Positions 2,542 through 28,986 of a stretch of 64,000 nt of DNA are shown here, piece by piece (position 1 is the stretch's first letter; each line of letters starts with the position of its first letter). The notes under the pieces were generated by a model. That model worked only from the letters and a program-made list of their open reading frames with translations, did not search any database and was not told the origin of the DNA. The translations under genes were made by a program, and so were the position numbers. This DNA is from a virus, in the IMG/VR virus record IMGVR_UViG_3300032397_000008, positions 1 to 64,000 of that record. The stretch is one strand, 5' to 3'.

Positions 2542-3176
2542 GACAGGATGAAAAACCCGTTTCCATTCGGTGTTCCGGCCCAGTTTTTCTTGATGAATCC
2601 GTGTTTGGTGTGGTAGAAGCTGATATGCCACCCGCTGCTGGTGAACAAGTCATGCCACCATTCGATGGGTTGACGAACTTTATGGGTAACGTCCATCTCA
2701 TAGGATGAGATGTTATATTTGGTACCGTCTCCCAAGGGTACGATGATATAGGCGTTCTGACCTGCATCTCTAAGATGTTTGACAACCGACGATAGCTCCG
2801 ACTGCTCGATATGTTCCAGCACGTCCTTGGCGATGATCCAATCCCATTTTGTTCTGGGCTTTGGAGGTAGGGGAAGGGTTTGACCGGGTTTTACGAGGGT
2901 AAGAAATTCCTTTACGTCCTCTGGTGCGTGATTGATGGCGTACTCGCTTATGTCTACTCCAAAAGCATCGAACCCCAACAGTCTGAATCCTTTGACTACG
3001 AATCCTTTGGAGCACCCGAAATCCAGGATCATTTCGTGTTGTTCAATGGCGCACAAGCGCACCATCTCATAGCACATGGGAATGGTCAGCTCGGGAATCC
3101 ACCGGTAATCGGTGTAGAGGCTCAGGCCGGTGGCGATGCCTCTCTCGAAATAGTTTTCGTTAAATGAATTCTGCAT
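2538..3176 (-). CDS. SAM-dependent class I methyltransferase
   Basis: 212 residues. The Rossmann motif I is clear (ILDFGCSKG near residue 43), followed by the acidic end of beta-2 (FGVDIS) and a motif IV/post-IV region with AKDVLEHIEQSEL. This is the Methyltransf_11/23-like architecture common in glycan and lipid modification clusters. It overlaps the radical SAM gene upstream by 17 bp and the glycosyltransferase downstream by 4 bp, so the three are probably cotranscribed and translationally coupled. The substrate is unknown; a sugar or glycan O- or C-methylation would fit the neighbours. Confidence 0.75.
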   Translation of the reverse strand: MQNSFNENYFERGIATGLSLYTDYRWIPELTIPMCYEMVRLCAIEQHEMILDFGCSKGFVVKGFRLLGFDAFGVDISEYAINHAPEDVKEFLTLVKPGQTLPLPPKPRTKWDWIIAKDVLEHIEQSELSSVVKHLRDAGQNAYIIVPLGDGTKYNISSYEMDVTHKVRQPIEWWHDLFTSSGWHISFYHTKHGFIKKNWAGTPNGNGFFILS

Positions 3177-4494
3177 GTGTTATGGGTTTGCTTTGGAACC
3201 GTTTGTGTCCTATGCCGTGCGTTTTCCAGTCATCCAGCATATTGACATTGCGAGTGAACACGCAACCTGAGCAGCGAAGCTTCGGGTTGAACTGCATCTT
3301 GATTTCTCCGTCCAGGAACTTGAGAATATCATCGGCATGACAAATCTGATATTCTTTGGCAAAGTGTTGGTAGGAGTCATTCAGGACTACGCTGTCGCAT
3401 GGGTACACGGTTCCGGGCTGCCCGTTGGCATGGAACTTTTCCTCGCTCAGATAGGGACGGAAGTATGCCTGGTGGCAAATATCGCATGTGGGAACTTCAT
3501 GGATTTTATGCTGGTGGAAGAACCGGCTGTCTCCCAGTAGGGTAAGTGTTTTATCCATAGCCCTGTGCATCAGCAGTAATTCCCTTCGTTCTAATAAGCA
3601 GTTTGGCAGGAGCCGGACGTACACAGCACCTACTCGGTCAGCGATCTTGGCAGCTTTACGCAACACTTCAACCCGGTCAGTAGCATCCGTGCTCGATGTT
3701 GATTGGTGCTCGGTTGTGTAGATCATAGAGCATCCGACCGTGCATCCAGAATTCAATTTGTCTACAGGTAGAGTAATTTTCTCTTCCCACCCGTCAAACA
3801 TGTTAATACTGATTCTGACCCAGGAGAACATGCCCCATACGTCGTCGTCAACTCGTTGAGTCTGGGTTCCGTTGGTGATCAAGGCGATGGACAGTCTTCT
3901 TTGTTTCAACCATCGAACCAATTCGTTTATGCAGGGGTATAAGGTAGGTTCGCCACCCCCTGTTAGGATCACCGCTTTCAAGCCGCGGGTTTGGAGGTTT
4001 TCCACGTACTTTTTAATCGTATCCAGAGGAATACGGGAATGCGTGTCGCGATAAGTAACGGAACAAAATGGACAACGGAGATTGCACTGGCCTTCTGGGG
4101 AGACGTGAGTTGAGATCACGGAGTTGTTGGTACTGGTGAGGTAGGATTCCATTTGGCGTTGGTGCTGCCAGAACTTCGCGCCGGTTGAGGTGAACTTGTG
4201 TTCTAGTTCAGATGGGTCCATGCCGATTGGGTCTGTGATGTCCTCGCTACTGAATACGAAGGCAGAAGAGTAAGAGGTTCCATGGGCAACTCGGTCAAGG
4301 ACCAGACGAGCCGTTTCTGGTGTGAATGCTTTAGCTCGGCTGGAACCGTCTGATTGGATTTCTTCGTAGTGGTCCAAGGTATTCGTGATTTGGCTTCGAT
4401 AGGTCACGCGCACGACACAAATCTTACCTTCTTTCTCTACGGCTTTCATTATGCCGTGCCCGCCTGGGATGTTAATTGAGTACAGAGATTTCAT
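3160..4494 (-). CDS. Radical SAM enzyme with C-terminal cysteine-rich region
   Basis: 444 residues. The CxxxCxxC cluster motif appears as CNLRCPFC near residue 140, followed by the GGGEPTLYP motif that contacts S-adenosylmethionine. The C-terminal third has further cysteines (CDICHQ, YPCDS, CSGC) like SPASM/twitch auxiliary cluster regions. The ATG at 4494 is preferred over a TTG at 4500 because it overlaps the upstream TAA. It sits among glycosyl and methyl transferases, which suggests a radical step in sugar or peptide modification. The substrate is not predictable. A second, shorter radical SAM gene lies at 29261. Confidence 0.75.
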   Translation of the reverse strand: MKSLYSINIPGGHGIMKAVEKEGKICVVRVTYRSQITNTLDHYEEIQSDGSSRAKAFTPETARLVLDRVAHGTSYSSAFVFSSEDITDPIGMDPSELEHKFTSTGAKFWQHQRQMESYLTSTNNSVISTHVSPEGQCNLRCPFCSVTYRDTHSRIPLDTIKKYVENLQTRGLKAVILTGGGEPTLYPCINELVRWLKQRRLSIALITNGTQTQRVDDDVWGMFSWVRISINMFDGWEEKITLPVDKLNSGCTVGCSMIYTTEHQSTSSTDATDRVEVLRKAAKIADRVGAVYVRLLPNCLLERRELLLMHRAMDKTLTLLGDSRFFHQHKIHEVPTCDICHQAYFRPYLSEEKFHANGQPGTVYPCDSVVLNDSYQHFAKEYQICHADDILKFLDGEIKMQFNPKLRCSGCVFTRNVNMLDDWKTHGIGHKRFQSKPITHAEFI

Positions 4495-5111
4495 TACCAA
4501 TTGGGGGTACCGTCGGCTTCAAAGATTTGACCTACGAATCCCGTGTACTGAGTGTGAGGGGGAAACGGCACGGCATTGAAAGCACATCCGTGTTCCAGGC
4601 AGTCATGTTCGATTAGAGGGTATATGTTACCCATCAGGAAGTAGGCATCTTGCATACGGTCTACTTTGTTGGGGTGCTTTTCGATTAGTGCCTCCATATC
4701 AGGGATGACTCCGCCCTTGATACCCCACATGCCTCCGAACATTTGCCACATCTGATGATGAACATGGTCTCGCATGATATGCGCCTTCTTTCCAGAGGCG
4801 ATCCAGGCGTTTACCGCTGCTTGTTCACGGACGTTTAACCGGCTATCCAGGTCACGACAAATGATGCGCTCGGCGCTAGGGTCGGACGCTGCCAGAAACC
4901 TCCAGAACATGCCCGTGGTACCCTCGCTTTTCGGCATAGCGATAATCTCCGCCCCCTCGCTGATTAGCTCGGGTATGGCGGGGTGGCCTCCCTCCACGTA
5001 GATTCGGAGTTGCCATCCTGGATAGATGACGGGTGTTAGGCGACAGTTGGCAACCGCCCCCCGGACGTATTTTGGATTTTCTCCGTAGAGACTGGTTGAA
5101 ATCAGATTCAT
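4494..5111 (-). CDS. Glycosyltransferase-like protein, paralogue of the gene at 8661
   Basis: 205 residues. The start (MNLISTSLYGENPKYVRGA) matches that of the gene at 8661-9533 (MNRIISMCLYGTEERYWRTF), and both carry a metal-binding style motif in the same relative place (ICRDLDSRL here, LSRDCDAVP there). They are therefore likely duplicates of one GT-A-like ancestor with different substrates. Overlaps of 4 bp upstream and 3 bp downstream indicate an operon. No named family is certain. Confidence 0.5.
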   Translation of the reverse strand: MNLISTSLYGENPKYVRGAVANCRLTPVIYPGWQLRIYVEGGHPAIPELISEGAEIIAMPKSEGTTGMFWRFLAASDPSAERIICRDLDSRLNVREQAAVNAWIASGKKAHIMRDHVHHQMWQMFGGMWGIKGGVIPDMEALIEKHPNKVDRMQDAYFLMGNIYPLIEHDCLEHGCAFNAVPFPPHTQYTGFVGQIFEADGTPNW

Positions 5112-9589: not shown

Positions 9590-10417
9590 ATGAGAACTGA
9601 TCTCTTGAAACAGTTGCTGGCAGTACAAACTCACCACGGCGACGAGTACCGAGTGATCTGTTTCTTGATAAATTATGCTCGGGTTGAATCACACGGCATC
9701 AAGGCGCACGTAGACGATTTCGGAAATGTTTACTTTGTCAAAGGTATTCCCGAAGACGGTGGATTCTACCCCTGCGTCTGCGCTCATACGGATTCCGTTC
9801 ATCACATTCTACCGCATCCAGTTGTGATCAAGGAGCATAACAGTCTCCTTTTCGCGATTGATTCTCACAATCAACCGACTGGGTGCGGTGGAGATGACAA
9901 GGCCGGTATCTTCATCTGCCTAGAGTTGTTTGAGAAGCTGAGTGTGTTGAAAGGGGTGTTCTTCGTTTCGGAGGAAATTTTCTGTGCGGGGTCTCGGCAC
10001 AGTGACCCGGAATTCTTCTCAGACGTTGGATATGTCTTCGAATTCGACTCTCCGTGCAACGATATTCTTACCTATACCTGCGATGGCACTCAATTGTTTG
10101 AAGATGATGGACAGTTTATTACCAAGCTCTTGCCAATACTCAATAAGCATGGTGTGACAAAATGGCAACGGCATCCTTATACGGACGTATCGGTCTTAAA
10201 GCGCCGGCATCCGTTTTCTTGTATCAATTTACCGGCTGGATATTTTCGTATGCACAGTACGTTTGAATACGTCAGTTTGGTGGCGGTGGAAAATTCGATC
10301 GCTTTGGGAGAAGCAGCGATTCGCACGCTAGGTAACCTTTGCTACACTTATTCCCGGGATGATCGTGGTAAATCCCCTCTCCACGAAGTGACACTTTTAC
10401 AGACTCACGACGTTTAA
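9590..10417 (+). CDS. M20/M28/M42-like metallopeptidase
   Basis: 275 residues with the ordered metal-ligand motifs of the M20/M42 clan: CAHTDS (His and Asp, near residue 65), GGDDKAG (bridging Asp, near 104), EEIFCAGS (general base Glu and ligand Glu, near 128) and a C-terminal HSTFEYV supplying the last His. Length is shorter than most cellular aminopeptidases and there is no obvious dimerisation lid. The ATG at 9590 directly follows the TAAGAAC motif. It converges on the helicase gene with a 4-bp overlap of the ends. Role could be processing of a phage or host peptide. Confidence 0.7.
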   Translation: MRTDLLKQLLAVQTHHGDEYRVICFLINYARVESHGIKAHVDDFGNVYFVKGIPEDGGFYPCVCAHTDSVHHILPHPVVIKEHNSLLFAIDSHNQPTGCGGDDKAGIFICLELFEKLSVLKGVFFVSEEIFCAGSRHSDPEFFSDVGYVFEFDSPCNDILTYTCDGTQLFEDDGQFITKLLPILNKHGVTKWQRHPYTDVSVLKRRHPFSCINLPAGYFRMHSTFEYVSLVAVENSIALGEAAIRTLGNLCYTYSRDDRGKSPLHEVTLLQTHDV

Positions 10418-11832
10418 TCACCTTTACGTTCGTTTAGGCGGGTGTCGATATCGTCAATGTCGTTCATATTGACTCGGTGTCCGATCGGTCTGCGGTGAAT
10501 CCAGTCGTCGGCGTCCGGGTCGTACTTTAGGCGTTCGGTAAATTCTATGTTCATGCGTTCTGGGTCAACCGTGCCACCGATGTGGTGGAATGCCGATCCA
10601 TGACGGTTTAAAAACACGAACGCTCTGATCCTATGGTTTAGGTGCTCCTTGGGTGTAGCGCATAGTCCGATTGCAACGTCTACTATACCGGCCTTTTCGA
10701 ACGCACCTTGAAAACTTTTCATATCTGGCACGTTTTTGTCTACAGTCTCCTTGTTGCAGCGGTCCGGCATGATCACGGTGCATTTCAATTCGGAAGCGAG
10801 CGCACGCGCTTCCGTATAGATGTCGGACTGTTGACGATAGTCGGGGACGGTTTTGTTGAGTTGAGCGCTGGGTCGGATGCATTCGGCGTGGTCGATGAAG
10901 ATTGCTTTGGGCTGTTTTCCAGTGGTATTGATAATGTGCTTGGCATGTAAGCGAATGTCTTGGATGGTGGCCATTTTGGATGAGAATCCTTTAATGAACA
11001 CTTCCCCGTTCAGTCCGGCTAGGATTGCGCGATACGAATCCTGGGCAAACTGGATTGGATGTGTTTTCGCTTCATTGTCCGTGGTTCCTGACAAGCGGCA
11101 CAGCATGCGCCAGGCGGCCAGGTCTTCTCCAATTTCGCAGGCGTAGTAAAAAACGTGCTCTCCCACTTGAGGACCCGCCATATTTAGAGCTAGGTTGAGG
11201 CAGTAACAAGTTTTGAATCGTTTAGGGGGCGCTATAATGGTTACCAGCCAGCCGGGTCCCCACCCCGTTTTCCAGATCTCGTCAAAGATGGGGTATCCGG
11301 TTCGAATTCCATAGGTTTCTGCGGTAACCCGGTCGATGACTTCGTGATATTGCTGATTCAGGTGTATCCCGTCGTCTTTGATATCGTACCCAATCATCAA
11401 AGCTTCTTCGATCAGAGTAATGGGATTGATTTTGTGGCCGGTGTTGGTTTTGACTGCTTCAACGACTTTAGAGCAAGCATGGATAATCGCCCGTTCCTTA
11501 CAAAAGGATACTAACCGATCTTTGACTTCGTCTACGTTTCGAGTGTTAATTTCAGAAAGCTTGCGGATGTAGTCCAGAGCATCAGCTACCTGTTCTTCGT
11601 TTCCAAGCTTGGTGAATTCTTGGAACATCAGATCGCCCAGTACCGTAGGCGTAGGCGAGACGCCGTGCTTGGTTATACACTCGATGAGGCACTTGGCTGC
11701 CAGGGCGGCGTTCAACCCGGTGAAGTATTCGTTGCGTAGGATTTGGCCATAGAGCACGAACTTTTCTGGGTGCCTCATCCAGCATGCTAGGATAAGGTCT
11801 TGATAATCATTCGAAAAATTGAAGGTCTCCAT
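10414..11832 (-). CDS. DnaB-like replicative helicase
   Basis: About 472 residues. The C-terminal RecA-type domain has a Walker A-like loop APPKRFKT near residue 210, an atypical form of GxxxxGK(T/S). A Walker B-like strand (KAIFIDHAE), a QQSDIYTEARALASEL helix and an arginine-finger-like region (FVFLNRHG) follow, as in DnaB/gp41 helicases. The N-terminal ~150 residues are helical, like the DnaB N-domain. An in-frame ATG at 11868 would add 12 residues and overlap the upstream gene. It probably unwinds the phage fork with the polymerase at 12908. Confidence 0.7.
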   Translation of the reverse strand: METFNFSNDYQDLILACWMRHPEKFVLYGQILRNEYFTGLNAALAAKCLIECITKHGVSPTPTVLGDLMFQEFTKLGNEEQVADALDYIRKLSEINTRNVDEVKDRLVSFCKERAIIHACSKVVEAVKTNTGHKINPITLIEEALMIGYDIKDDGIHLNQQYHEVIDRVTAETYGIRTGYPIFDEIWKTGWGPGWLVTIIAPPKRFKTCYCLNLALNMAGPQVGEHVFYYACEIGEDLAAWRMLCRLSGTTDNEAKTHPIQFAQDSYRAILAGLNGEVFIKGFSSKMATIQDIRLHAKHIINTTGKQPKAIFIDHAECIRPSAQLNKTVPDYRQQSDIYTEARALASELKCTVIMPDRCNKETVDKNVPDMKSFQGAFEKAGIVDVAIGLCATPKEHLNHRIRAFVFLNRHGSAFHHIGGTVDPERMNIEFTERLKYDPDADDWIHRRPIGHRVNMNDIDDIDTRLNERKGD

Positions 11833-11842
11833 AGTGGTTGAT

Positions 11843-12868
11843 TTAGAATGTGTTAACGCTAAGGGCATTTTTCTGACCGTGGGTAAACTTCAAGCACTCC
11901 AAGTGCTGAGCGCACAAACCGATCTTGTACCACAGTTCGACTGAGTCGGTAACTTCTTCGTCTACTGTCTCTAAGTCGGTGGTTTGGAATCCGAAACGGG
12001 ATAAGACGGTGGGTAGGACATTTTTTACTGCGGAAGTTCGTGCTTCGAACACGGAGATTGCATATGGCTTTCTACGCTTCATCTGTTGTAGACAACGGAT
12101 GACCGAATAGCGATGTCGCTGTTGTTCCGAGGTACCGAACGGGACCGGGATGAATTTGGACAGGATTTCCGAGTAGTAGGACTGTTCCGTCGCCAGCCAA
12201 AGAGGGTCGAGGGCAAGTTCACGCCTGGTGTATAGTATGCTGGTTGGGTATCCGTCGTGCAGCTTTTTGAATCCTACGATGAATTCTCCGGCTAGTGTTT
12301 CTGAGTGAATCATCCGCTGGTAGGACGATGAGTCTCCGATCTTAACGCCGGTAAGCAGCTCCAGCTCACGGTCGCAGTCGCTGTCGTGGAATGAAGCATA
12401 TTTTTGCCGGCATATCTTGGCGTAAAGCTCTACGGTCTTGATCTTTCCCTTTTTAGCGAGGCTGGCCGGAAAGAATTGAATCCGGTCAGTGAGGTCATTT
12501 TCTTTATGCGCCACCATCAGTGTCATGATGTAAGTCCGTAACGATACGCCGGCAGTGTTAGCGTGTTGGGTAATGGCCTGGGCGTATTGACCAACGTTTT
12601 GTTTGGAGGGCTCTTTGAATACAGCACTGTAGCAATCTTGATAGATTATCTCGATACGCTCATGCTCGTTACTGTAGTTTATGTCTACGTCAAACCCAAT
12701 CGGCATCAGATTTATGCGTAAACGATCCAGCGTGATTTTTCCAAGTCGAAAATCCATCAGCTTGCCACATTCAACCTTGTGCGTGCAGACACCACACATC
12801 TTGTTGGTGTTGAACTGATCCAGCCCAAAGCACTCTATCGGAGGCGGAGGGTATGCTGTTCGTTCCAT
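11843..12868 (-). CDS. Unknown protein upstream of the helicase
   Basis: 341 residues, not recognised. The N-terminus has CGVCTHKVECGK, which could bind zinc, and the rest is mixed and basic without an obvious enzyme motif. It is cotranscribed with the DnaB-like helicase (about 10 bp apart) and divergent from the DNA polymerase. That position would suit a helicase loader, primase accessory or other replication factor, but this is inference from location only. Confidence 0.55.
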   Translation of the reverse strand: MERTAYPPPPIECFGLDQFNTNKMCGVCTHKVECGKLMDFRLGKITLDRLRINLMPIGFDVDINYSNEHERIEIIYQDCYSAVFKEPSKQNVGQYAQAITQHANTAGVSLRTYIMTLMVAHKENDLTDRIQFFPASLAKKGKIKTVELYAKICRQKYASFHDSDCDRELELLTGVKIGDSSSYQRMIHSETLAGEFIVGFKKLHDGYPTSILYTRRELALDPLWLATEQSYYSEILSKFIPVPFGTSEQQRHRYSVIRCLQQMKRRKPYAISVFEARTSAVKNVLPTVLSRFGFQTTDLETVDEEVTDSVELWYKIGLCAQHLECLKFTHGQKNALSVNTF

Positions 12869-12907: not shown

Positions 12908-15900
12908 ATGGCAGAAGAGAAGAACGCGAGAGGTCCGAAGGTAGTCATGCGTGACTTGAGCGGGTCCGTCATGAAGCTGACTGCGGTTGGCGATAAGTGG
13001 TTTCGAGATACGTTGATGGTGCATCAGACCCCGATTCGAGAGGGGACCAAGCTGGTCTACACTTTTGATCCATCAGACCCGCTAGGGCGTCACCAGATTC
13101 ATCCATCTAGCAAGATGCCGGTTTGTGCTGTTAAGTGTGGGATGCACGATGCGGGTGGTAAGAATCCATTCATTTCTCCTATGGGGTCTAACGACCCTTT
13201 GATCACAATCGTTCTGGACGCTGTGTCCAAAGCTGAAGATACGGCAGGTGAAATCGGTGTTTTAATGAACAAGGGCACAGCGGGTTTGTTGGCCGAGTTC
13301 ATAGAGAAGAGCCATAAGTATCACGGGGTTAACTTGGATGATATCCGGTGGGTTACCACTACGCGCTGCTATCCTGCCAAAGGTAAGTACCCCAACATGA
13401 AGCAGAAGGGCAATTGGTGCCGTATGTTCGCAGTTCAGGACTTGGCGACCTATCGGCCTAAGCTTGTGATGCCGGTCGGTTCGAATGCCCTAGGACTGCT
13501 GTCTCACAAGTCTAATGCGTGGGATTGGGCAGGCAAGACCTTGACGTACCGCGGGTGGCCTGATGATTGGTTGACGGATCCTAATTTTGCGCTGCCTCGC
13601 CCGCACCCTTCCAAAGAGGATCAGTCTATTGTCGGTCATCCTTTGTTTGGTCCACCACCCGATTGGAGAATTCCAATGTATCCCATTCAGGCACCCAGGA
13701 TGGTTTATATGTCTCAGAACCCTGAAGAGATCAGGAAGTGGAAAGAGAGTATCATCAAAGGGCTGAAGTTGGCGAAGGATGGAATTAAGCCCAAGAACTA
13801 TGACCGACCGTGGTATCATCTTACAAACAATCCAAATGAGGTTGCTGAGGCACTGTTGTGGCTGTCGGAGCATCCCGGAACCACTGTATGCTATGATACT
13901 GAGACGACTGGACTTAGACCTTGGCTAGGACACAAGATCGTTTTCATGATGTTTCGTTGGGTAGATGATAAAGGAGCCCCTCATTCTATCGGGTTTCCAT
14001 GGGACTACGACACCAGTCCGTTAAAGTCTTGTATAGGGGAGCTGTCGCCTGTCGTTTTGGAAGCTCTCTATGCTTCCAACGTCGGAGGGCACAATATCAC
14101 GTTTGATGTCCTGTTTACTGCGGCAACAGTGCTTGGGGCAGACTTAAATCGTCTGGCAGACGCTGCCCAGTGGGACACTTGGCATATGGCATATACTGCC
14201 CGACAGCAACGTGGTACCTTGGGCTTGGAGGCGGTTGCCTATGATTTCGCCCCCGATCTGGCAGGGTATGAGGAGGAGATGACTTTGCTCATCGGCCTGC
14301 ACGGCGATTTGCTTGATCCAAAGAACGATAAGGGTGGGCACTATGCTAATTGTCCGGTGGAAAAGTGGGAGACACATTTCAAGCCGTACGTCATGGGTGA
14401 CGTAGAGGTATGTTATACGGCACGGGAGGCAATTCAAGAGAAGTTAAACAACTCCAAGGTCTACAAAATTCCTCTGGCGCATCCTGGTATGCGTGGACGA
14501 TTTCGTTGGTTTCTCCCACCTAGCCGGGCGTGGGTGTACGATAGTATCATGTCCCCCTCGGCCCAAGTACTGATGAAGATGATGGGTAGGGGTCTCTACG
14601 TGGATCAGGAGGAGTTGGCCCACCAGGAACATATTTTTCCGATCATGGTTAACGAGTCACGGGACAAGATGAAAGTGGTCACGCCCGAGGTAGAAAACTG
14701 GTGCCAGACAATGGCGGAAGAGGAGCCCGGATGGACTTTGGATCTGGAGAATAAGTCCACTCTTCGGACCATTCTGTTTGAGGTGTTAAATCTTCCCGTG
14801 CAACGCCTGACCAAGACGGGTAAGCAAAAATACGGTGACTCTGAAGAGGCGGTTCTGGCACTTTCTCGCGAGCAGCAGCTAGAGTATGCGGCACTGGACA
14901 AGTTTACACTTAACAAGCTATCCGTAGGGCACCCAGAGGTTCGTCCGCTTCAGGACTATCGCAAGGTTTTCAAACAGTATTCGACTTACGTCCGACCGGT
15001 TAGGAATATCATGACGGCTGGCATTGACAAGAAGAAGCGGGTTAAAGACCGTAACTTAGGGGACGATGGGTTTATTCATGGTAGTTTCTTACTAACTGGG
15101 ACACGAGGGGGCCGGCTCGCATCGCGGGATCCAAATCTTCAGCAGCTCCCGAACGATTCCATTGTAAAACGGATGTTCAGTTCTCGGTTTGGAAAGCGTG
15201 GGTGTCTATACACGGCGGACTTCAGTCAGATCGAACTTCGTCTTTTGGCGGCGGTGTCCGGGGACAGCAATATGATAGAGGCGTACGAAAAGGAAATGGA
15301 CCTTCATTCACTGACGACTGCGCGTATTTTTGGTTTGGATTATGAGCAGTTTTCTAAGGAGAACATGAAGAAGCTTCAGGACAAGGGAAAGGTTAAGGAA
15401 GCAAAGGAATTAGAGCTAAAGCGCAAGATTGGGAAATGTGTTGATCCTCTTACTTGGATTCAAGTAAACAGAAAACTGGTGCGAATAGGAAGTTTCTCTC
15501 CTAGTTCTCTTAGTCCTAATACATTTTACAAAGTGCCAGATTGCGTGTTAACTTCGCAGCATGGAGAATTAGTTTCATTGAAACACTTTTATTACAATGG
15601 TATTGGGGATCGTCTTTTGGTGTGTAGCCGATTTGGATTGATTGCTTGTTCAAAAACACACCAATTCTTGATGAAAGATGGTAGTTTGGTGCAAGCACAG
15701 TATCTTAAACCGAAAGATATCCTATGCGAGCCGGTACCATTTGTGCTTTCTGAAGGTCAGAGAGTGATTCTTCCGATAAATCCGTTTTTGAGTAAGATCA
15801 CCGCTTCCGGACCGTTTTTCGTTGAAATTAACGACGATCTGGCATACTTAGTGGGAGTTTTTCTGGGGGATGGCAACTCTAACAAGAATAGTATTACTAT

Positions 15901-17164
15901 AGCGGCCGGACACGGTCCTAAATTTGCTAGATGGCGACAATCTCTGTTAAATTCGTTTGAACGAGTTGGGATTAGTGCAACGTGTAATATAGGTAAACCC
16001 AGGAAGGACGGGTCGGCCTGTGACACAGTTTATGCTGGAAGTCGGCACGCTCAGTCGGTGTTTAAGACGTTAGGAGTGGTTGGAGAAGACACCAAAAAGA
16101 AATTTTGTATCCCTGACTATATGATGGATGCTCCTAGGAGTGTGCGTTTGTCGATGCTTGCTGGACTTATAGATACGGATGGGTCAATAGCACGAAGTGG
16201 AAGTATAGAAATTACTTCAAAGTCGTGGCAGCTAATTCAGGACATACTTGTATTGTTGTCGAGTTGTGGCCTTCACGCTTCACTTGAATCTTCCTACAAT
16301 AAAACATATGATCGGTATTACTTCAGAGTAAGAATCGCTAAGCGATCTGCTATCCATTTGAAAGAGTACTTGCGTTGTCACTGGAAAAAAGATTCCATTA
16401 CCCCTCCGGTTTTTGGATATGAAGTTTTGAAAGATAATGAGGTTAAACTAATTCTGGCTTTGGAAGAAGGACCGCTGGTAGACGTAGAAGTTGATTCTTC
16501 AGAACATTTGTACGTAGCTAATGGACTTGTTACTCATAATACGTGTAACTTTCTCACGGGATACGGTGGTGGGGCACTCGGCCTGCAAACCACCCTCGCC
16601 AACGCTCAAGTGTACTTACCGATTGAGGAGTGCGAAGATATCATCGACAAGTTCTTTTCATCTTACTCAACTTTGAAAGAGTACCTCGCTTACTACAAGC
16701 AGTTTATCATGGATGCTGGCGTAGCGGTTAGTATCTTTGGGCGTGTTCGTATTTTCAATGAAGTTTTCGGAGAGGATCGTGAAGCGATCGGTAAAGCTCT
16801 GCGTGCCGGGGCGAACCATTTGATCCAAGCGACGGCATCCGATATGATGCTGATTTGCTTGCATGTGATCGAGGCGCTGATGCGTTCGGAGCGATTAGAA
16901 TCCATTCTGGTATCCACGGTGCATGACTCACTTCTAATTGACGCTGTGATGACGGAGCTGCCAAAAATTCACGAGATCGTCGATCAAGTTTTGAACAACA
17001 TTCCGGACGTTCTCAAGCTTGTTTTCGGTGACGACTATGACACGTCCTGGTGTTTGATTCCGTTCGGTGGAGATAGCTCGGTTGGGTTGAACTACCTCGA
17101 CCAGATTGCAATTGGAAAATCTAAACCGGACTGGGATGAACTTTTGAATTTCAAGAAGGGCTAA
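12908..17164 (+). CDS. Family A DNA polymerase with N-terminal UDG-like domain, interrupted by an intein
   Basis: 1418 residues before splicing, about 1050 after. Residues ~60-260 resemble family 4 uracil-DNA glycosylases (RCYPAKGKYPN and VMPVGSNALGLL correspond to the KCRPPGN and LGxxA regions). A 3'-5' exonuclease follows (CYDTETTGLRP near residue 330), then the polymerase domain: motif A YTADFSQIELRLLA, motif B KRKIGK...TCNFLTGYGGG and motif C STVHDSLL. The intein splits motif B after the catalytic lysine, so polymerase activity should require splicing. It is read divergently from the helicase operon. Confidence 0.85.
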   Translation: MAEEKNARGPKVVMRDLSGSVMKLTAVGDKWFRDTLMVHQTPIREGTKLVYTFDPSDPLGRHQIHPSSKMPVCAVKCGMHDAGGKNPFISPMGSNDPLITIVLDAVSKAEDTAGEIGVLMNKGTAGLLAEFIEKSHKYHGVNLDDIRWVTTTRCYPAKGKYPNMKQKGNWCRMFAVQDLATYRPKLVMPVGSNALGLLSHKSNAWDWAGKTLTYRGWPDDWLTDPNFALPRPHPSKEDQSIVGHPLFGPPPDWRIPMYPIQAPRMVYMSQNPEEIRKWKESIIKGLKLAKDGIKPKNYDRPWYHLTNNPNEVAEALLWLSEHPGTTVCYDTETTGLRPWLGHKIVFMMFRWVDDKGAPHSIGFPWDYDTSPLKSCIGELSPVVLEALYASNVGGHNITFDVLFTAATVLGADLNRLADAAQWDTWHMAYTARQQRGTLGLEAVAYDFAPDLAGYEEEMTLLIGLHGDLLDPKNDKGGHYANCPVEKWETHFKPYVMGDVEVCYTAREAIQEKLNNSKVYKIPLAHPGMRGRFRWFLPPSRAWVYDSIMSPSAQVLMKMMGRGLYVDQEELAHQEHIFPIMVNESRDKMKVVTPEVENWCQTMAEEEPGWTLDLENKSTLRTILFEVLNLPVQRLTKTGKQKYGDSEEAVLALSREQQLEYAALDKFTLNKLSVGHPEVRPLQDYRKVFKQYSTYVRPVRNIMTAGIDKKKRVKDRNLGDDGFIHGSFLLTGTRGGRLASRDPNLQQLPNDSIVKRMFSSRFGKRGCLYTADFSQIELRLLAAVSGDSNMIEAYEKEMDLHSLTTARIFGLDYEQFSKENMKKLQDKGKVKEAKELELKRKIGKCVDPLTWIQVNRKLVRIGSFSPSSLSPNTFYKVPDCVLTSQHGELVSLKHFYYNGIGDRLLVCSRFGLIACSKTHQFLMKDGSLVQAQYLKPKDILCEPVPFVLSEGQRVILPINPFLSKITASGPFFVEINDDLAYLVGVFLGDGNSNKNSITIAAGHGPKFARWRQSLLNSFERVGISATCNIGKPRKDGSACDTVYAGSRHAQSVFKTLGVVGEDTKKKFCIPDYMMDAPRSVRLSMLAGLIDTDGSIARSGSIEITSKSWQLIQDILVLLSSCGLHASLESSYNKTYDRYYFRVRIAKRSAIHLKEYLRCHWKKDSITPPVFGYEVLKDNEVKLILALEEGPLVDVEVDSSEHLYVANGLVTHNTCNFLTGYGGGALGLQTTLANAQVYLPIEECEDIIDKFFSSYSTLKEYLAYYKQFIMDAGVAVSIFGRVRIFNEVFGEDREAIGKALRAGANHLIQATASDMMLICLHVIEALMRSERLESILVSTVHDSLLIDAVMTELPKIHEIVDQVLNNIPDVLKLVFGDDYDTSWCLIPFGGDSSVGLNYLDQIAIGKSKPDWDELLNFKKG
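15437..16540 (+). mobile_element. Intein with LAGLIDADG endonuclease inside the DNA polymerase
   Basis: 368 residues within the polymerase frame. It begins with Cys (CVDPLTWIQV) and ends VTHN, followed by Thr as the +1 residue, the usual splice junctions. LAYLVGVFLGDGN and LSMLAGLIDTDGS are the two dodecapeptide motifs of a LAGLIDADG homing endonuclease, both with the catalytic acid. Insertion falls in the O-helix of motif B, one of the most conserved polymerase sites and a frequent intein target. The coding sequence is visibly more A+T-rich than the flanking extein. Confidence 0.9.
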
Positions 17165-23907: not shown

Positions 23908-23981
23908 GGTGTCATCGTTTAGTGGCAGGACATAACTCTGGCAGAGTTGAGACGGGAGTCCGATTCTCCTTGATTCCACCA
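23908..23981 (+). tRNA. tRNA-Ala(GGC), elbow exception
   Basis: Acceptor GGTGTCA/TGATTCC has one T-T mismatch at 3:70 and one wobble pair. Anticodon loop CTGGCAG. D-loop AGTGGCA keeps GG, and the T-loop is TCCGATT, so G18-C55 and G19-C56 could pair. It lacks G3-U70, so the charging identity is less sure. Confidence 0.65.
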
Positions 23982-24015
23982 ATTTCTCAACCACCCTATC
24001 TTTTGTACCGATCGT

Positions 24016-24066
24016 GCATCAGCAGTAAAATGTATACACGTTCTCGTGTATGTGCTGTTAAGATGC
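24016..24066 (+). ncRNA. Nested hairpin element
   Basis: GCATC (24016-24020) pairs with GATGC (24062-24066), AGCA with TGCT, and TACACG with CGTGTA around a TTCT loop. The layered pairing suggests a structured RNA in the stretch 23982-24229, which also holds an AGGCGT/ACGCCT hairpin and no convincing gene. It may be a diverged tRNA or a further domain of the large RNA upstream. Confidence 0.4.
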
Positions 24067-24192
24067 GTTGTTTCTTTGACAGTCTATTAGGCGTCCGACA
24101 CGCCTAGCACGGGGTCAACACATCCTCGTCTGGATGGAGTGCTCGTGGAACGCTGCTAAAAGCGGTCAGGATAAACCACTTAGGTGGGCAGC

Positions 24193-24216
24193 CCTGACAG
24201 TCACTAATCGGTCAGT
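24193..24216. repeat. 24-bp inverted repeat, left copy
   Basis: These 24 bases are the exact reverse complement of 41713-41736. Similarity continues imperfectly for about 14 more bases on one side. The two copies flank almost the whole tRNA region. Confidence 0.75.
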
Positions 24217-24229
24217 AAAGGACTTCGGG

Positions 24230-24313
24230 GGGCACGTGGTTCAACCAGAATAGCAGATGGTCCAGCTTCAAAACCTGGCAGCCTTAAAGGTGCAAGTCCT
24301 TTCGTGCCTACCA
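24230..24313 (+). tRNA. tRNA-Leu(CAA)
   Basis: Acceptor GGGCACG/CGTGCCT (G1-U72), A73, CCA. Anticodon loop TTCAAAA with a C-C mismatch closing the stem. D-loop GAATAGCAGA is closed by CCA/TGG, about eight bases after the acceptor. Variable region of only 7 nt; T-loop TGCAAGT. Confidence 0.8.
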
Positions 24314-24341
24314 TTTGTAATTGTTCCACGTGAAGAATCAT

Positions 24342-24416
24342 CAGGTACGTGATGTAAGAGTAGCATCTCAGACTGTGAATCTGACCGTACGGGTGCGAAT
24401 CCCGTCTACCTGACCA
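24342..24416 (+). tRNA. tRNA-His(GTG)
   Basis: Acceptor CAGGTA/TACCTG with an extra U-A pair possible at -1:73. D-stem GATG/CATC, D-loop TAAGAGTAG. Anticodon loop CTGTGAA in a perfect TCAGA/TCTGA stem. T-stem ACGGG/CCCGT, T-loop TGCGAAT. Confidence 0.85.
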
Positions 24417-24424
24417 TTTCAAGC

Positions 24425-24666
24425 CAAAAAGCCAGAACGCTGGCCATGGTAATCAGCCTGTGGCTAGAGGAAGTTCAAGACTGCTCAACTCGTCGATTGG
24501 GAGGGCATTCGTGCCCGTTATCACCACAAGTCCGCAGCAATCCTAAAGCGCCCCAGCATGTGAGTTGTGCGCTACGAGGGCATGGTTGGAGCAGCGGCTA
24601 TTAGCAAGCCGCCAGGTTCGCCTGAGATAAATGTTCTGGATAACAGAATCTTGGCTACCTTTTTGA
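24425..24666 (+). ncRNA. rnpB: RNase P RNA (compact, phage-encoded)
   Basis: The catalytic core aligns with bacterial RNase P RNA. CR-I is AGAGGAAGTTCAAGA, and CR-V is AGATAAATGTTCTGGATAAC followed directly by AGAATCTTGGCTACC. The P4 strands TTCAAGA and TCTTGG pair, replacing the usual CCGGG/CCCGG, so the pairing is conserved while the sequence is not. P5 is TGCTC/GAGCA, a small P3 is AGCC-TGT-GGCT, P18 is CAGG-TTCG-CCTG and P2 is GGTA/TACC. The specificity domain is short, about 110 nt, and the P15-like loop lacks a GGU to bind CCA. It lies between tRNA-His and tRNA-Ala. Ends are approximate. Confidence 0.85.
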
Positions 24667-24675
24667 CTTGATTGT

Positions 24676-24751
24676 GGGGACGTGGCAGACAAGTGATGCA
24701 CCTGGTCCGCAACTAGGTTTAAGCGGGAGCGTTACCCGTCGTTCTCCACCA
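24676..24751 (+). tRNA. tRNA-Ala(CGC), C33
   Basis: Acceptor GGGGACG with CGTTCTC, leaving one extra C before ACCA. Anticodon stem CCTGG/CTAGG, loop TCCGCAA with C at 33. T-stem GCGGG/CCCGT, loop AGCGTTA. If the loop shifted by one base it would read CCG (Arg). Confidence 0.65.
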
Positions 24752-24758
24752 ATTTCAC

Positions 24759-24833
24759 GGGGGATTAGTGATAGTGCCAGCACAACCGGTTTGCACCCGG
24801 TAAGCAGCGGTCGGATTCCGCTATCCTCCACCA
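24759..24833 (+). tRNA. tRNA-Ala(TGC), elbow exception
   Basis: Acceptor GGGGGAT/ATCCTCC includes the G3-U70 alanine determinant; A73, CCA. Anticodon loop TTTGCAC. D-loop carries G-C where 18-19 fall, and the T-loop is TCGGATT, so G18-C55 and C19-G56 could pair. Confidence 0.85.
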
Positions 24834-24839
24834 TTTCAC

Positions 24840-24913
24840 GGGTCGGTAGTGTAACAGTAGCACAGCAGCCTCCAAACCTGCTTGTCAGGGTGCAAATCCT
24901 TGCCGACCTGCCA
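24840..24913 (+). tRNA. tRNA-Trp(CCA)
   Basis: Acceptor GGGTCGG/CCGACCT, G73 as expected for Trp, CCA. D-stem GTG/CAC with loop TAACAGTAG. Anticodon loop CTCCAAA with a C31-C39 mismatch. T-loop TGCAAAT. Confidence 0.85.
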
Positions 24914-24919
24914 CCTTTC

Positions 24920-24994
24920 CGCCCGTTGGCCGATCCGCAAAGGCGGCGGTTTGCAGAACCGCAGAGGCTGGTGCAACTCCAGCACGGGCGTCCA
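24920..24994 (+). tRNA. tRNA-Cys(GCA)
   Basis: Perfect acceptor CGCCCGT/ACGGGCG, U73 as in Cys tRNAs, CCA. Anticodon stem GCGGT/ACCGC, loop TTGCAGA. D-loop GATCCGCAAA offers C18-G19 opposite T-loop TGCAACT (G55-C56). Confidence 0.9.
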
Positions 24995-25016
24995 TTTAGA
25001 ACCACGTAGTTAGGGT

Positions 25017-25652
25017 GTGAGATCACAGGACATCATTGAGGCGATAGTTGGCGATCAACCCGAAATCACCGATTATATCGTAGACATTTCTCGGTGGGCG
25101 GCGCAGACGGAACCCGATGACGAAAACGCTGCTATCGCACTTGCCAACAAGGCGCTGGAAGAATACCGTGTAACGTACGTAACGGGTGACCCTATCGTAT
25201 CTCACGGGGGTAGAGTAGAGGCAGACGGCACTATCAAAATTGCTGTAGACAACGGATTCTACGACTTGGTAAACAGTAAACAGTTTCCAAGTGTGATTCA
25301 GCATGAGTTCGTTCATCAGGAGCAGGTGCGCCACGCTGGCGAAGGCGCTAGTAAGATGGCGGCGAACTCGTACAACCGATGCTTGAACCCTGATGGTTCG
25401 ATTAACATGAAGGAGTACTACTTAATCCCTTACGAGATTATGGCGTATGCTAAATCTGTGGCAGACAGTTTTAAGACGGCGGGTATGAGTAAGGATGAAG
25501 TGTTGAAGATGCTTCGAACGAAAGTGCATCTATGGAAACTTCCATCGGACGTCCAAAAGTTTATTTATCCTTACTATTCCAGGCGCAAGAAGCATCCAGA
25601 CGTGTGGCACAAGTTTCTTCGTTACACGATTGACTATGTTCGGAATTGGTAA
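25017..25652 (+). CDS. HExxH metalloprotease-like protein
   Basis: 211 residues from a GTG start that directly follows GTAGTTAGGGT. IQHEFVHQEQ near residue 100 is a zincin HExxH motif, and IPYEIMAYA about 40 residues later could give the third ligand, as in gluzincins. The N-terminus (RSQDIIEAIVGDQ) resembles that of the protein at 26210. Target unknown; phage zincins are often host-directed or act in virion maturation. Confidence 0.6.
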   Translation: MRSQDIIEAIVGDQPEITDYIVDISRWAAQTEPDDENAAIALANKALEEYRVTYVTGDPIVSHGGRVEADGTIKIAVDNGFYDLVNSKQFPSVIQHEFVHQEQVRHAGEGASKMAANSYNRCLNPDGSINMKEYYLIPYEIMAYAKSVADSFKTAGMSKDEVLKMLRTKVHLWKLPSDVQKFIYPYYSRRKKHPDVWHKFLRYTIDYVRNW

Positions 25653-25661
25653 AAATAATGC

Positions 25662-26204
25662 ATGGATGAGACTGTTCAAATCGCTGGGCGTTGGAACTAC
25701 GAGTCATTCCTTGAGCCGATTCAATACGGTGAGACCGAATCTTATCGACTGGCTGCTGCGTGGCTGAACGGTTGTTCTGAAGTTGAGGATTGGGGATGCG
25801 GATGTGCTTTCGCTAAGAGGTTTTTCACTACCCAGTACATAGGCATTGACGGCAGCAAGAGTCTCTGGAATGATAAAGTTGCCGATTTGATGATTTATCG
25901 TAGCAAGACTGAGGGATTACATATACGCCATGTTCTGGAGCACAATTACCTATGGCGTCCGATCTTGCGGAACGCTCTTGACTCTTTTACCAAGCGGATG
26001 GTTCTGACCTTGTTTATCCGGCCGACACCGACGGATATGGATGTTTTTGGAACTGTGCAAAATCACTATTTTCAGGAGGTTCCAAATCGTGGCTTGTGCA
26101 AGAAAGACTTGATGGAAATGATAGGTTCGTTTTTGGTGGAAACTCACGAGCTGGATACCGGAGAGGTGGTTTACTTACTGGAAAAGAAGATCGATGGTAG
26201 TTAA
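25662..26204 (+). CDS. Class I methyltransferase-like protein
   Basis: 180 residues. VEDWGCGCA near residue 42 is motif I of a class I methyltransferase, YIGIDGSKS is the following acidic strand, and RHVLEHN matches the HxLEH signature of Methyltransf_11-like enzymes. It starts 9 bp after the metalloprotease-like gene, in one unit. Substrate unknown. Confidence 0.65.
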   Translation: MDETVQIAGRWNYESFLEPIQYGETESYRLAAAWLNGCSEVEDWGCGCAFAKRFFTTQYIGIDGSKSLWNDKVADLMIYRSKTEGLHIRHVLEHNYLWRPILRNALDSFTKRMVLTLFIRPTPTDMDVFGTVQNHYFQEVPNRGLCKKDLMEMIGSFLVETHELDTGEVVYLLEKKIDGS

Positions 26205-26209
26205 GGTGT

Positions 26210-26464
26210 ATGCCAAAATCTCGTGACATCATTGATGCGGTTGTGGAAGGCCATCACTACCCGGTAGAAGATGAGCCGCCGAGGGCGGGATTCACCAGCC
26301 CTGAGGAAGATACGGCATTCTACACTAAGAACCCGTTCCTGGCATATAACAAGGCTTTGGAGTTGGGTCGTCACGATGATCGCTTCTGGAGGGCTATTCG
26401 AGGGTCTGTCTACGAAAAGCCTTATGCCGAACGGTTCTTCCGCAAAAGTCGTCCGGCCGGGTAA
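26210..26464 (+). CDS. Small unknown protein
   Basis: 84 residues beginning KSRDIIDAVVEG, similar to the start of the protein at 25017. The rest is charged with no recognised domain. The start is preceded by GTAGTTAAGGTGTATG, although this motif overlaps the end of the methyltransferase gene. Confidence 0.5.
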   Translation: MPKSRDIIDAVVEGHHYPVEDEPPRAGFTSPEEDTAFYTKNPFLAYNKALELGRHDDRFWRAIRGSVYEKPYAERFFRKSRPAG

Positions 26465-26472
26465 ATAATTGT

Positions 26473-26558
26473 CCGCCACTAGACCGCTAAAGATACGGGG
26501 CAGGCTGTAAACCTGTCGTCTTCGGGCCAGGAAGGAGCATTACCTTCGTGGCGGACCA
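26473..26558 (+). tRNA. tRNA-Tyr(GTA)
   Basis: Perfect acceptor CCGCCAC/GTGGCGG, A73, CCA. Anticodon stem GCAGG/CCTGT, loop CTGTAAA. Long variable arm as in bacterial Tyr tRNAs. D-loop contains A-G, T-loop AGCATTA. Confidence 0.9.
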
Positions 26559-26565
26559 TTTTCAC

Positions 26566-26641
26566 GGGACGTTCTTCTAGTAGACCAGGATATTGCTCTG
26601 TCTAAGCAATGACTCGGGTGCGAATCCCGAACGTCTCGCCA
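26566..26641 (+). tRNA. tRNA-Asp(GTC)
   Basis: Acceptor GGGACGT/ACGTCTC, G73 as in Asp tRNAs, CCA. Anticodon stem TTGCT/AGCAA, loop CTGTCTA. D-stem TTCT/AGGA. T-loop TGCGAAT. Confidence 0.9.
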
Positions 26642-26658
26642 TTTTAGTTCTTGTAGGC

Positions 26659-27516
26659 ATGCGACTGTTGGATTATCAGAACGACGTGTTTTCTCAGAAC
26701 GGTGAGGATGGAATCCTTGCTCAGGTTTTTAAGATCATCGGCGTGCGTCATAAACGGTGCATGGAGTTTGGGGCTTGGGACGGATTATACTTATCTAACG
26801 TAGCTCGTCTGTGGGCTGACGAAGGTTGGGAAGCTATCCTCGCCGAAAAAGACAGGTCTAGGTTCGATCAACTGGTCCGCAACACGTCGGACAAACCGGT
26901 CGAGTGTCACAACTTTGCGGTCGAATCGACCGGAGACCACTCCATTGATACTATTTTGAACGGACGGGAACTCGATTTGATAGTGATTGATGTGGATGGA
27001 GACGACTGGCTTCTTTGGAAAAGCATGGTGTGCCGGCCAAGAGTGGCGGTTATCGAGTACAATTGTTCCGTACCGCTGGGAATATCTATGGCCCAAGCCT
27101 CGGGGGAATACTTCGGAGCATCGGCCCAGGTCTTGATCGACATTGGTCGCCGCAAGGGCTATAGCTTGGTTGAGATGAACATTTGTAACTGCTTTTTTGT
27201 GCAGGACGAGTACCTGCCCTTGTTCAATGGATATGAGCTTGATCCGGTCAAGCTGTTCGATCCTCGTTTTTTGGTCTACGCTGTCAGTGCCTTTGACCGG
27301 CGCATGGCTTTGACCAGTAACGAATCGGCTTGGGGAGTCTTTCAGACGTGCACTGTCAATAAAATTCAGTTGGCAATATGTTGTGCCGATCAGGGTGTAG
27401 CTCAATCTAGTAGAGCGCCTGGCCTGGGACCAGGAGGTTGCAGGAGCGAAGCCTGTCACCCTGACCATTTTTACTCAAACGGTCTTGTTTACCGCACAGT
27501 AAACAAGACCATTTGA
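26659..27516 (+). CDS. FkbM-like methyltransferase whose frame runs through a tRNA
   Basis: 285 residues from an ATG that follows GTTCTTGTAGGC. FSQNGEDGILAQVF, CMEFGAWDG (motif I) and IVIDVDGDDW are typical of FkbM-family methyltransferases. The family core ends around residue 235, but the frame continues without a stop through the whole of tRNA-Pro(TGG) and into the hairpin at 27471. The last ~45 residues are therefore encoded by tRNA sequence and are unlikely to be ancestral; a lost stop or frameshift near 27360 is possible. Confidence 0.65.
   Translation: MRLLDYQNDVFSQNGEDGILAQVFKIIGVRHKRCMEFGAWDGLYLSNVARLWADEGWEAILAEKDRSRFDQLVRNTSDKPVECHNFAVESTGDHSIDTILNGRELDLIVIDVDGDDWLLWKSMVCRPRVAVIEYNCSVPLGISMAQASGEYFGASAQVLIDIGRRKGYSLVEMNICNCFFVQDEYLPLFNGYELDPVKLFDPRFLVYAVSAFDRRMALTSNESAWGVFQTCTVNKIQLAICCADQGVAQSSRAPGLGPGGCRSEACHPDHFYSNGLVYRTVNKTI
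27391..27467 (+). tRNA. tRNA-Pro(TGG), C33
   Basis: Perfect acceptor CAGGGTG/CACCCTG, A73, CCA. D-stem GCTC/GAGC, D-loop AATCTAGTA. Anticodon stem CCTGG/CCAGG, loop CCTGGGA with C33. T-loop AGCGAAG. Lies entirely inside the reading frame of the gene at 26659. Confidence 0.85.
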
Positions 27517-27520
27517 GTAA
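27471..27520. repeat. 22-bp near-perfect inverted repeat between two Pro tRNAs
   Basis: Arms 27471-27492 and 27499-27520 are complementary apart from one C-A mismatch, around the 6-base loop CGCACA. As RNA this is a very stable 22-bp hairpin with no U-tract, so it is not a standard terminator. It could be an RNase III-type processing site or a small mobile element. Confidence 0.8.
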
Positions 27521-27523
27521 ACT

Positions 27524-27599
27524 CCGGGTGTAGTGTAGCAGTCAACATGCTTGTTTCGGGAACAAGTGATCGTGGATGCAAATTCCACCACCCGGACCA
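27524..27599 (+). tRNA. tRNA-Pro(CGG)
   Basis: Perfect acceptor CCGGGTG/CACCCGG, A73, CCA. Anticodon stem CTTGT/ACAAG, loop TTCGGGA. D-loop TAGCAGTCAA, T-stem GTGGA/TCCAC, T-loop TGCAAAT. Confidence 0.9.
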
Positions 27600-27603
27600 A
27601 TTT

Positions 27604-27780
27604 TGAGTCGCCTGGTGCTCCGACAAGGAGATCGCCAGTTAGGGAGAGCATGCTCGTGTCGGCAGGAGTGCCTCCCAAATTCCGCCTGCTCACGTGCCAC
27701 GAGTCTGGCTTGTCAGGATCGCTGCGGCACCCAAATGGCATGTCGTAACAGCGTAGTAGCGCACGTCGCCAGGTGACTCA
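27604..27780 (+). ncRNA. Structured RNA closed by a 12-bp stem
   Basis: TGAGTCGCCTGG (27604-27615) pairs with CCAGGTGACTCA (27769-27780). Inside are CTCC-GACAA-GGAG, GGGAG/CTCCC and GGCA-GGAG-TGCC hairpins. It follows tRNA-Pro after a short T-rich spacer and precedes a protein gene. No tRNA fold and no family are recognised. Confidence 0.5.
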
Positions 27781-27813
27781 ATTACTTGTTATGCTTTCCG
27801 TTCTTACAGGCGT

Positions 27814-28155: not shown

Positions 28156-28188
28156 GGGTTATCTAAAATGTATACCCTCTGCACCAAC

Positions 28189-28674: not shown

Positions 28675-28727
28675 ATTCTAACTACGACTGCCATCTGTGG
28701 ATTTGACAAAGTCAGTGCAAGCAGTCT

Positions 28728-28801
28728 TGCTGGGTAGTGTAATAGTAGCACGAGGGTCTCTGAAACCCTTTGAATGGGTGCGAATCCTGTCCCAGCAGCC
28801 A
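28728..28801 (+). tRNA. tRNA-Gln(CTG)
   Basis: Perfect acceptor TGCTGGG/CCCAGCA, G73, CCA. D-stem GTG/CAC, loop TAATAGTAG. Anticodon stem AGGGT/ACCCT, loop CTCTGAA. T-loop TGCGAAT. Confidence 0.9.
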
Positions 28802-28808
28802 ATTTCAC

Positions 28809-28883: not shown

Positions 28884-28886
28884 CTT

Positions 28887-28980: not shown

Positions 28981-28986
28981 CTTTCT

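What the first reader, a model, noticed from the sequence alone, without database searches (positions are those of the whole stretch)
12908..17164. DNA polymerase fused to a UDG-like domain and split by an intein in motif B
The N-terminal region reads as a family 4 uracil-DNA glycosylase-like domain, followed by exonuclease and polymerase. The intein falls after the catalytic lysine of motif B. A glycosylase-like domain on a replicase suggests uracil sensing, as in some enzymes that stall at uracil, or a non-catalytic clamp.
Basis: partly seen in the sequence, partly recalled or inferred. Interest (0 to 1): 0.6.

Follow-up and report, generated by a model that had tools for sequence, protein, structure and literature searches.

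The report
Phage polymerase with disarmed glycosylase domain
This phage DNA polymerase starts with a domain descended from a uracil-removing repair enzyme that has kept its iron-sulphur site but lost its uracil-cutting residues, and the gene is interrupted by a self-splicing intein; the fusion is a known kind, here in an uncultured phage clade with a distinct form of the domain.

Summary
ORF 12908-17164 (+) is a 1418-aa family A DNA polymerase with a UDG-like N-terminal domain, a 3'-5' exonuclease and a polymerase. A 368-aa LAGLIDADG intein (15437-16540) sits directly after the motif B lysine. The domain is homologous to family 4 UDG: a profile matches only family 4/X UDGs in the PDB (E 1e-6), and the AlphaFold model (pLDDT 89) matches family 4/X UDGs in its first 36 PDB hits. 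It is not a working family 4 UDG by sequence. In all 17 relatives tabulated, the four iron-sulphur cysteines and the motif 1 acid are kept. The uracil-contact residues F54 and N80, the water-positioning N89 and the motif 2 histidine H155 (now Gln/Pro) are gone. A search with the polymerase domain alone found the domain in every member of this uncultured clade. Nearest outgroups include canonical-looking UDG motifs on the same polymerase, so the fusion probably came first and catalysis was lost later. Five of 21 distinct relatives carry the motif B intein. UDG-PolA fusions are already known (SPO1; here in hundreds of phages). My reading is a non-catalytic, iron-sulphur-stabilised accessory module, most likely for DNA binding or processivity. 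Uracil sensing is not supported.

The parts
12908..17164 (+). PolA precursor ORF, 1418 aa (UDG-like domain, 3'-5' exonuclease, polymerase, intein)
13115..13780 (+). UDG-like domain, aa ~70-291; non-catalytic by sequence
   Evidence: A1 profile vs PDB; AF2 pLDDT 89.4 and Foldseek; hhalign to phage family 4 UDG domains P 98.6, E 1.2e-15
13124..13138 (+). Cys73 and Cys77, first pair of predicted [4Fe-4S] ligands (CxxxC here, CxxC in relatives)
   Evidence: invariant in 17/17; aligned with TM0511 cysteines
13214..13240 (+). motif 1 equivalent LDAVSKAED (family 4: GEGPGEEED); acid D104 and E110/D111 kept, G-P-G lost
13367..13369 (+). Cys154, third predicted Fe-S ligand (TRC); upstream N80 replaced by Thr (Pro in most relatives)
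13418..13420 (+). Cys171, fourth predicted Fe-S ligand (NWC)
13508..13573 (+). clade signature KSNAxDWxGxxLTYRGWPDDWL
   Evidence: near-invariant across relatives
13634..13651 (+). GHPLFG in a clade-specific insertion; His244 invariant in A2
13682..13699 (+). motif 2 equivalent PIQAPR (family 4: HPS/HPA); Gln261 invariant, no His in this loop
   Evidence: strand-loop-helix in AF2 model
13892..14416 (+). 3'-5' exonuclease with Exo I (DTET), Exo II (HNITFD), Exo III (YVMGD) motifs
   Evidence: invariant in A3
15212..15241 (+). polymerase motif A TADFSQIELR
15422..15436 (+). motif B first half RKIGK (R839 ... K843)
15437..16540 (+). intein, 368 aa: Cys1, block B SKTH, two LAGLIDADG motifs, C-terminal HN
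   Evidence: allelic to L016/L017 inteins, 34-36% identity over full length
15839..15874 (+). LAGLIDADG motif 1 (LAYLVGVFLGDG)
16157..16183 (+). LAGLIDADG motif 2 (LAGLIDTDG)
   Evidence: Pfam LAGLIDADG_3
16541..17161 (+). C-extein: Thr+1, rest of motif B, motif C TVHDSLLID at 16916-16942
10414..11868 (-). DnaB-like replicative helicase, two genes upstream of the polymerase on the other strand
   Evidence: phrog_19 E 2.3e-47, Pfam DnaB_C

Best explanation
The gene encodes the phage's family A DNA polymerase, probably its replicase (a DnaB-like helicase gene lies close by). The N-terminal domain descends from a family 4 uracil-DNA glycosylase fused to the polymerase long ago. Shown: the fold match, the fusion in every clade member found, conserved cysteines, loss of the uracil-pocket and catalytic residues, conserved exonuclease and polymerase motifs, the intein and empty sites in relatives. 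Inferred: the domain no longer excises uracil; it binds a [4Fe-4S] cluster that holds it together, and works as a built-in accessory module that holds DNA or a partner replication protein and helps the polymerase stay on its template. The intein splices itself out to restore motif B and spreads by homing into intein-free polymerase genes.
For: Fold and homology. Residue table over 17 relatives: 4 Cys 17/17, E41 position D/E 17/17, D48 17/17; F54 to G/A/S/L, N80 to P/T/A, N89 lost, motif 2 His absent. H155S in Tth UDGa cuts k2 by over three orders of magnitude, and N80 and F54 changes cut k2/Km over 40- and about 17-fold (PMC5387724). A polymerase-only search found the domain in all 25 in-clade loci. 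Domain identity (46%) is close to that of the exonuclease (52%), invariant columns 15% vs 18%; in one close pair the domain has 9 synonymous and 0 nonsynonymous codon changes. Outgroup L071/L072 carries canonical motifs. Intein.
Against: No activity, DNA binding, Fe-S content or splicing is measured. The motif 2 register is uncertain by about two residues and I had no model coordinates. An invariant His244 (GHP) in the insertion might replace the lost His. The processivity role rests on a literature suggestion (PMC5135824) and on analogy with poxvirus D4 (own knowledge), not on data here.
Confidence: 0.6

Rival explanations
1. The domain still reads the template for uracil (or a deaminated base) without cutting and stalls the polymerase.
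For: UDG fold kept; motif 1 acid D104 and E110/D111 kept.
Against: The uracil contacts N80, F54 and H155 are replaced in all 17 relatives (roles in PMC5387724). No dUTPase, TS or ThyX in the 83-kb record, though that record may be incomplete.
Confidence: 0.1
2. The domain is an active glycosylase or lyase on some other, perhaps modified, base, using the invariant acid and the clade-specific invariant His244.
For: D/E104, E110/D111, His244 and the KSNA...YRGWPDDWL segment are strongly conserved; radical SAM, methyltransferase and glycosyltransferase genes nearby leave room for modified DNA.
Against: No motif 2 His in the strand-loop-helix position; N89 lost; no direct sign of base modification; location of His244 relative to the pocket unknown.
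Confidence: 0.1
3. The Fe-S cluster makes the domain a redox or DNA-charge-transport sensor that switches replicase activity.
For: Four cysteines invariant while catalysis decays.
Against: Structural clusters are also kept for folding; other phage PolA UDG-like domains (SPO1-type) lack the cysteines and those phages replicate.
Confidence: 0.08
4. The domain is a pure structural remnant with no role beyond folding of the polymerase.
For: Truncated or unrecognisable UDG region in other phages (Terranova, Muddy N-termini).
Against: Present in all in-clade loci found by a polymerase-only search, conserved nearly as well as the exonuclease, strong invariant segment.
Confidence: 0.12

Closest known systems
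SPO1-type phage DNA polymerases with N-terminal UDG-like domain (SBSphiC L012, phi18 L041, LysYB1 L013; Shbh1 in PMC5135824)
   Same: UDG-like + 3'-5' exonuclease + PolA order; degenerate motif 1
   Different: SBSphiC and phi18 lack the Fe-S cysteines; LysYB1 keeps them and a HPD motif 2. The window clade keeps all four cysteines, lacks the motif 2 His, has a GHPxFG insertion, and is a separate 100/100 clade on a long stem.
Canonical-looking UDG-PolA fusions (Manatee Spring phage MW202455; contigs L071/L072)
   Same: Family 4 UDG domain fused before exonuclease and polymerase; four cysteines
   Different: These keep GEAPG, N80, N89 and HPA and could be active glycosylases.
Family 4 UDGs TM0511 (1VK2) and Tth UDGa (1UI0)
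   Same: Fold (TM normalised to target 0.76-0.79), cysteines, acidic motif 1 residues
   Different: Stand-alone enzymes; uracil pocket and catalytic His intact.
UdgX (M. smegmatis)
   Same: Fold, ranked just behind family 4
   Different: UdgX cross-links to DNA through His109 (own knowledge); an equivalent was not looked for here.
Group I intron in SPO1 polA
   Same: Mobile element in a conserved PolA motif (between Asn675 and Leu676, Klenow numbering; PMC2814812)
   Different: That is an intron near the GRLS-PNLQ motif; here an intein in motif B. Relatives L016, L017, L027 and L030 carry inteins near the intron-type site.
Poxvirus D4 UDG as processivity factor (own knowledge)
   Same: A UDG fold used by a viral replicase for processivity rather than repair
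   Different: D4 is a separate subunit serving an unrelated polymerase family; analogy only.

Membership tests
Family 4 uracil-DNA glycosylase (UDGa) | UDG alpha/beta fold | tested here: met
   Foldseek ranks 1-36 all family 4/X; profile E 1.2e-6
Family 4 uracil-DNA glycosylase (UDGa) | four cysteine [4Fe-4S] ligands | tested here: met
   by sequence, 17/17; cluster itself not tested
Family 4 uracil-DNA glycosylase (UDGa) | motif 1 GE(G/A)PG | tested here: not met
   LDAVS; D/E kept, G-P-G lost
Family 4 uracil-DNA glycosylase (UDGa) | N80 uracil-binding Asn and F54 | tested here: not met
   T/P/A and G/A/S/L
Family 4 uracil-DNA glycosylase (UDGa) | motif 2 catalytic His (HPS/HPA) | tested here: not met
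   PIQAPR, invariant Gln; register +-2 uncertain
Family 4 uracil-DNA glycosylase (UDGa) | uracil excision activity | not testable with these tools
   needs assay
UDG-PolA fusion polymerases (SPO1 kind) | N-terminal UDG-like domain followed by exonuclease and PolA in one chain | tested here: met
UDG-PolA fusion polymerases (SPO1 kind) | same clade as SPO1-type polymerases | tested here: not met
   separate 100/100 clade, stem 2.82
Family A DNA polymerase with proofreading | Exo I-III and motifs A, B, C intact | tested here: met
   Klenow/Bst fold matches for relative L005
Class 1 intein with LAGLIDADG endonuclease | Cys1, block B TxH-type, C-terminal HN, +1 C/S/T, two LAGLIDADG motifs | tested here: met
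Class 1 intein with LAGLIDADG endonuclease | intein-free homologues at the same site | tested here: met
   16 of 21 distinct relatives lack it at motif B
Class 1 intein with LAGLIDADG endonuclease | protein splicing and homing | not testable with these tools
   needs expression
Aminoadenine polymerase DpoZ | NCBIfam DpoZ score above cut-off, PurZ in genome | tested here: not met
   43 bits vs 500; no adenylosuccinate synthetase family hit in the 83-kb record

The most novel reading that the evidence does not exclude
The disarmed UDG fold has been repurposed as a new base-, lesion- or redox-reading iron-sulphur module in cis on a replicase, using the acid D104/E110 and the clade-specific YRGWPDDWL and GHPxFG elements, so that the polymerase checks template chemistry during replication.
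Probability: 0.1. Interest if true: 0.7.

Novelty: new variant of a known kind. Interest (0 to 1): 0.35.

Why it matters
Hundreds of phage replicases carry a UDG-like domain whose job has not, to my knowledge, been tested. This clade, next to outgroups with canonical motifs on the same polymerase, gives a natural series from apparently active to disarmed domains. Paired enzymes (for example L071 and L018) would allow a direct test of whether the fold serves repair, uracil sensing or processivity.

Tried and rejected
Single-sequence searches of the N-terminal domain gave nothing (Pfam, PDB, phages); only profiles worked. The window's PHPS (aa 232-235) resembles UDG motif 2 and HMMER aligned it there, but the His is not conserved (H 6, D 5, gap 3, N, L, Y) and the model's strand-loop-helix points to PIQAP, so I rejected it. 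A genome-contig scan gave no relatives. DpoZ/Z-DNA was rejected. Thymine-free or uracil DNA: no supporting genes found, but absences are weak because the record may be a fragment. Domain arrangement in the full-length model (relative L005, pTM 0.80) was not used as evidence because no PAE or coordinates are returned.
Full report
OBSERVATION. ORF 12908-17164 (+) encodes 1418 aa. Pfam finds DNA_pol_A in two stretches and a LAGLIDADG endonuclease between them; PHROG 17 (phage DNA polymerase) aligns from residue 96, so it also covers most of the N-terminal domain. The intein is residues 844-1211, nt 15437-16540: Cys1 directly after Lys843 of motif B (RKIGK), block B SKTH, two intact LAGLIDADG motifs, C-terminal His-Asn, Thr+1 followed by CNFLTGYG. 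Exo I-III and polymerase motifs A and C are intact.

THE N-TERMINAL DOMAIN IS UDG-LIKE. On its own the sequence matches nothing. A profile of the window and 7 relatives at 38-47% identity hits 28 PDB sequences, all family 4/X UDGs, best TM0511 at E 1.2e-6. AlphaFold2 with 17 sequences gives pLDDT 89.4; Foldseek ranks 1-36 are all family 4 UDG or UdgX, E from 8e-10, TM 0.76-0.79 on the best family 4 targets. HHalign against UDG domains of cultured-phage polymerases gives probability 98.6, E 1.2e-15.

IT IS NOT A FUNCTIONAL FAMILY 4 UDG BY SEQUENCE. Positions were mapped on Tth UDGa numbering (PMC5387724) and tabulated over 17 sequences. Kept: four cysteines 17/17; E41 position D or E 17/17; E47 14/17 (D in 2); D48 17/17. 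Lost: P43 (V in 15), F54 (G/A/S/L), N80 (P/T/A), N89 (mixed), H155 (Gln261 invariant at the mapped place). In Tth UDGa, H155S lowers k2 over a thousand-fold, N80 changes lower k2/Km over 40-fold, F54A about 17-fold. Uracil excision is therefore unlikely, and uracil-specific reading through this pocket is unlikely too. Caveats: the motif 2 register is uncertain by about two residues, and an invariant His244 in the GHPxFG insertion could not be placed because no coordinates are returned.

FUSION HISTORY. A search of viral contigs with the polymerase domain only (blind to the N-terminus) returned 25 in-clade loci, all with the UDG-like domain (three with RGWPDG in place of RGWPDD). The nearest outgroups are L071/L072 (35% identity in the polymerase), with canonical GEAPG, N80, N89 and HPA motifs, and L070 (38%), degenerate. 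Cultured phages and other deposited records show the same series: Manatee Spring MW202455 canonical; StAshley largely canonical; PMBT14 and Serbin with GD(N/A)PN, HPA and N80 replaced by P; LysYB1 degenerate with cysteines; SBSphiC and phi18 without cysteines; some with the domain truncated or unrecognisable. 479 phage records match at least 80% of the Manatee Spring fusion, and many BFVD hits of the domain model are DNA polymerases. The window clade is monophyletic (100/100, stem 2.82) and separate from the phages sampled. I infer an old fusion of a working UDG followed by loss of catalysis in several lineages; I did not reconstruct ancestral states.

CONSTRAINT. Mean pairwise identity in the clade is 46% for the UDG-like domain, 52% for the exonuclease, 51% for the middle region, 64% for palm-fingers; invariant columns 15, 18, 20 and 36%. 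In the closest usable pair, L028/L029, the domain has 9 synonymous and 0 nonsynonymous codon changes. The numbers are small but fit purifying selection, so the domain has a job.

THE INTEIN. The window intein aligns over its full length with those at the same site in L016 and L017 (35.5 and 34.1%; L016-L017 46.6%), so they are alleles of one insertion lineage. Five of 21 distinct relatives have it, one of them a near-copy of the window; the rest lack it, most with an empty K|T site. L016 and L017 have a second intein at GGRL|S that shows no significant match to the motif B one; L027 and L030 have inserts a few residues further on, that of L030 too short for an endonuclease. SPO1's group I intron lies nearby, between Asn675 and Leu676 in Klenow numbering (PMC2814812). 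A 485-kb phage (L014) has an intein at the same motif B place, 27.7% identical. Splicing and homing are inferred from intact motifs.

CONTEXT. The record is an 83-kb virus record, possibly a fragment. A DnaB-like helicase gene lies two genes away on the other strand. Pfam searches of the whole record found no UDG over cut-off, thymidylate synthase, ThyX, dUTPase or adenylosuccinate synthetase; a fragment cannot prove absence.

MECHANISM. Best reading (0.6): an iron-sulphur-stabilised, non-catalytic UDG fold acting in cis as an accessory module for DNA or partner binding, plausibly processivity. That role has already been suggested for such domains in the Shbh1 paper (PMC5135824), and poxvirus D4 is a known case of a UDG used in processivity (own knowledge). 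Uracil sensing gets 0.1.

NOVELTY. UDG-PolA fusion and inteins in PolA are both known kinds. New here, as far as I could find: a separate environmental phage clade with the four-cysteine, His-less form of the domain, and its placement beside canonical-motif outgroups. No paper that my searches returned describes this clade, but the library is incomplete.

Noticed in passing
window 56253-58364 +: A second intein (LAGLIDADG_2, Pfam Intein_splicing, NCBIfam intein N- and C-terminal regions) in a 703-aa ORF whose extein weakly matches PHROG 836 (late transcriptional activator) and reads like a T4 gp55-type late sigma factor (the last by eye).
   Followed up: partly
window 23908-40645 +: 23 tRNA genes interspersed with many short ORFs.
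   Followed up: no
window 3160-4500 - and 29237-29965 +: Two radical SAM proteins with weak MoaA/QueE/viperin-like hits, all far below family cut-offs; function open.
   Followed up: partly
window 46238-48168 -: Two adjacent nucleotide-sugar epimerase-like genes, with several glycosyltransferase genes elsewhere in the window.
   Followed up: no
window 30547-30960 -: Sub-threshold match to dATP/dGTP diphosphohydrolase N-terminal domain (PF18909); no PurZ-family gene in the record.
   Followed up: partly
window 34436-35365 +: Dam-like adenine DNA methyltransferase, below the family cut-off.
   Followed up: no
L016, L017, L027, L030: PolA genes with inteins at slightly different places in the GGRLSxxPNLQ motif; L016 and L017 carry two inteins in one gene, L030 a mini-intein.
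   Followed up: partly
L014 3708-8984: PolA of an uncultured 485-kb phage with at least two inteins (motif B and after NSPVQG).
   Followed up: no
L071, L072, L033: PolA fused to family 4 UDG domains with all catalytic motifs intact: candidate bifunctional glycosylase-polymerases.
   Followed up: partly
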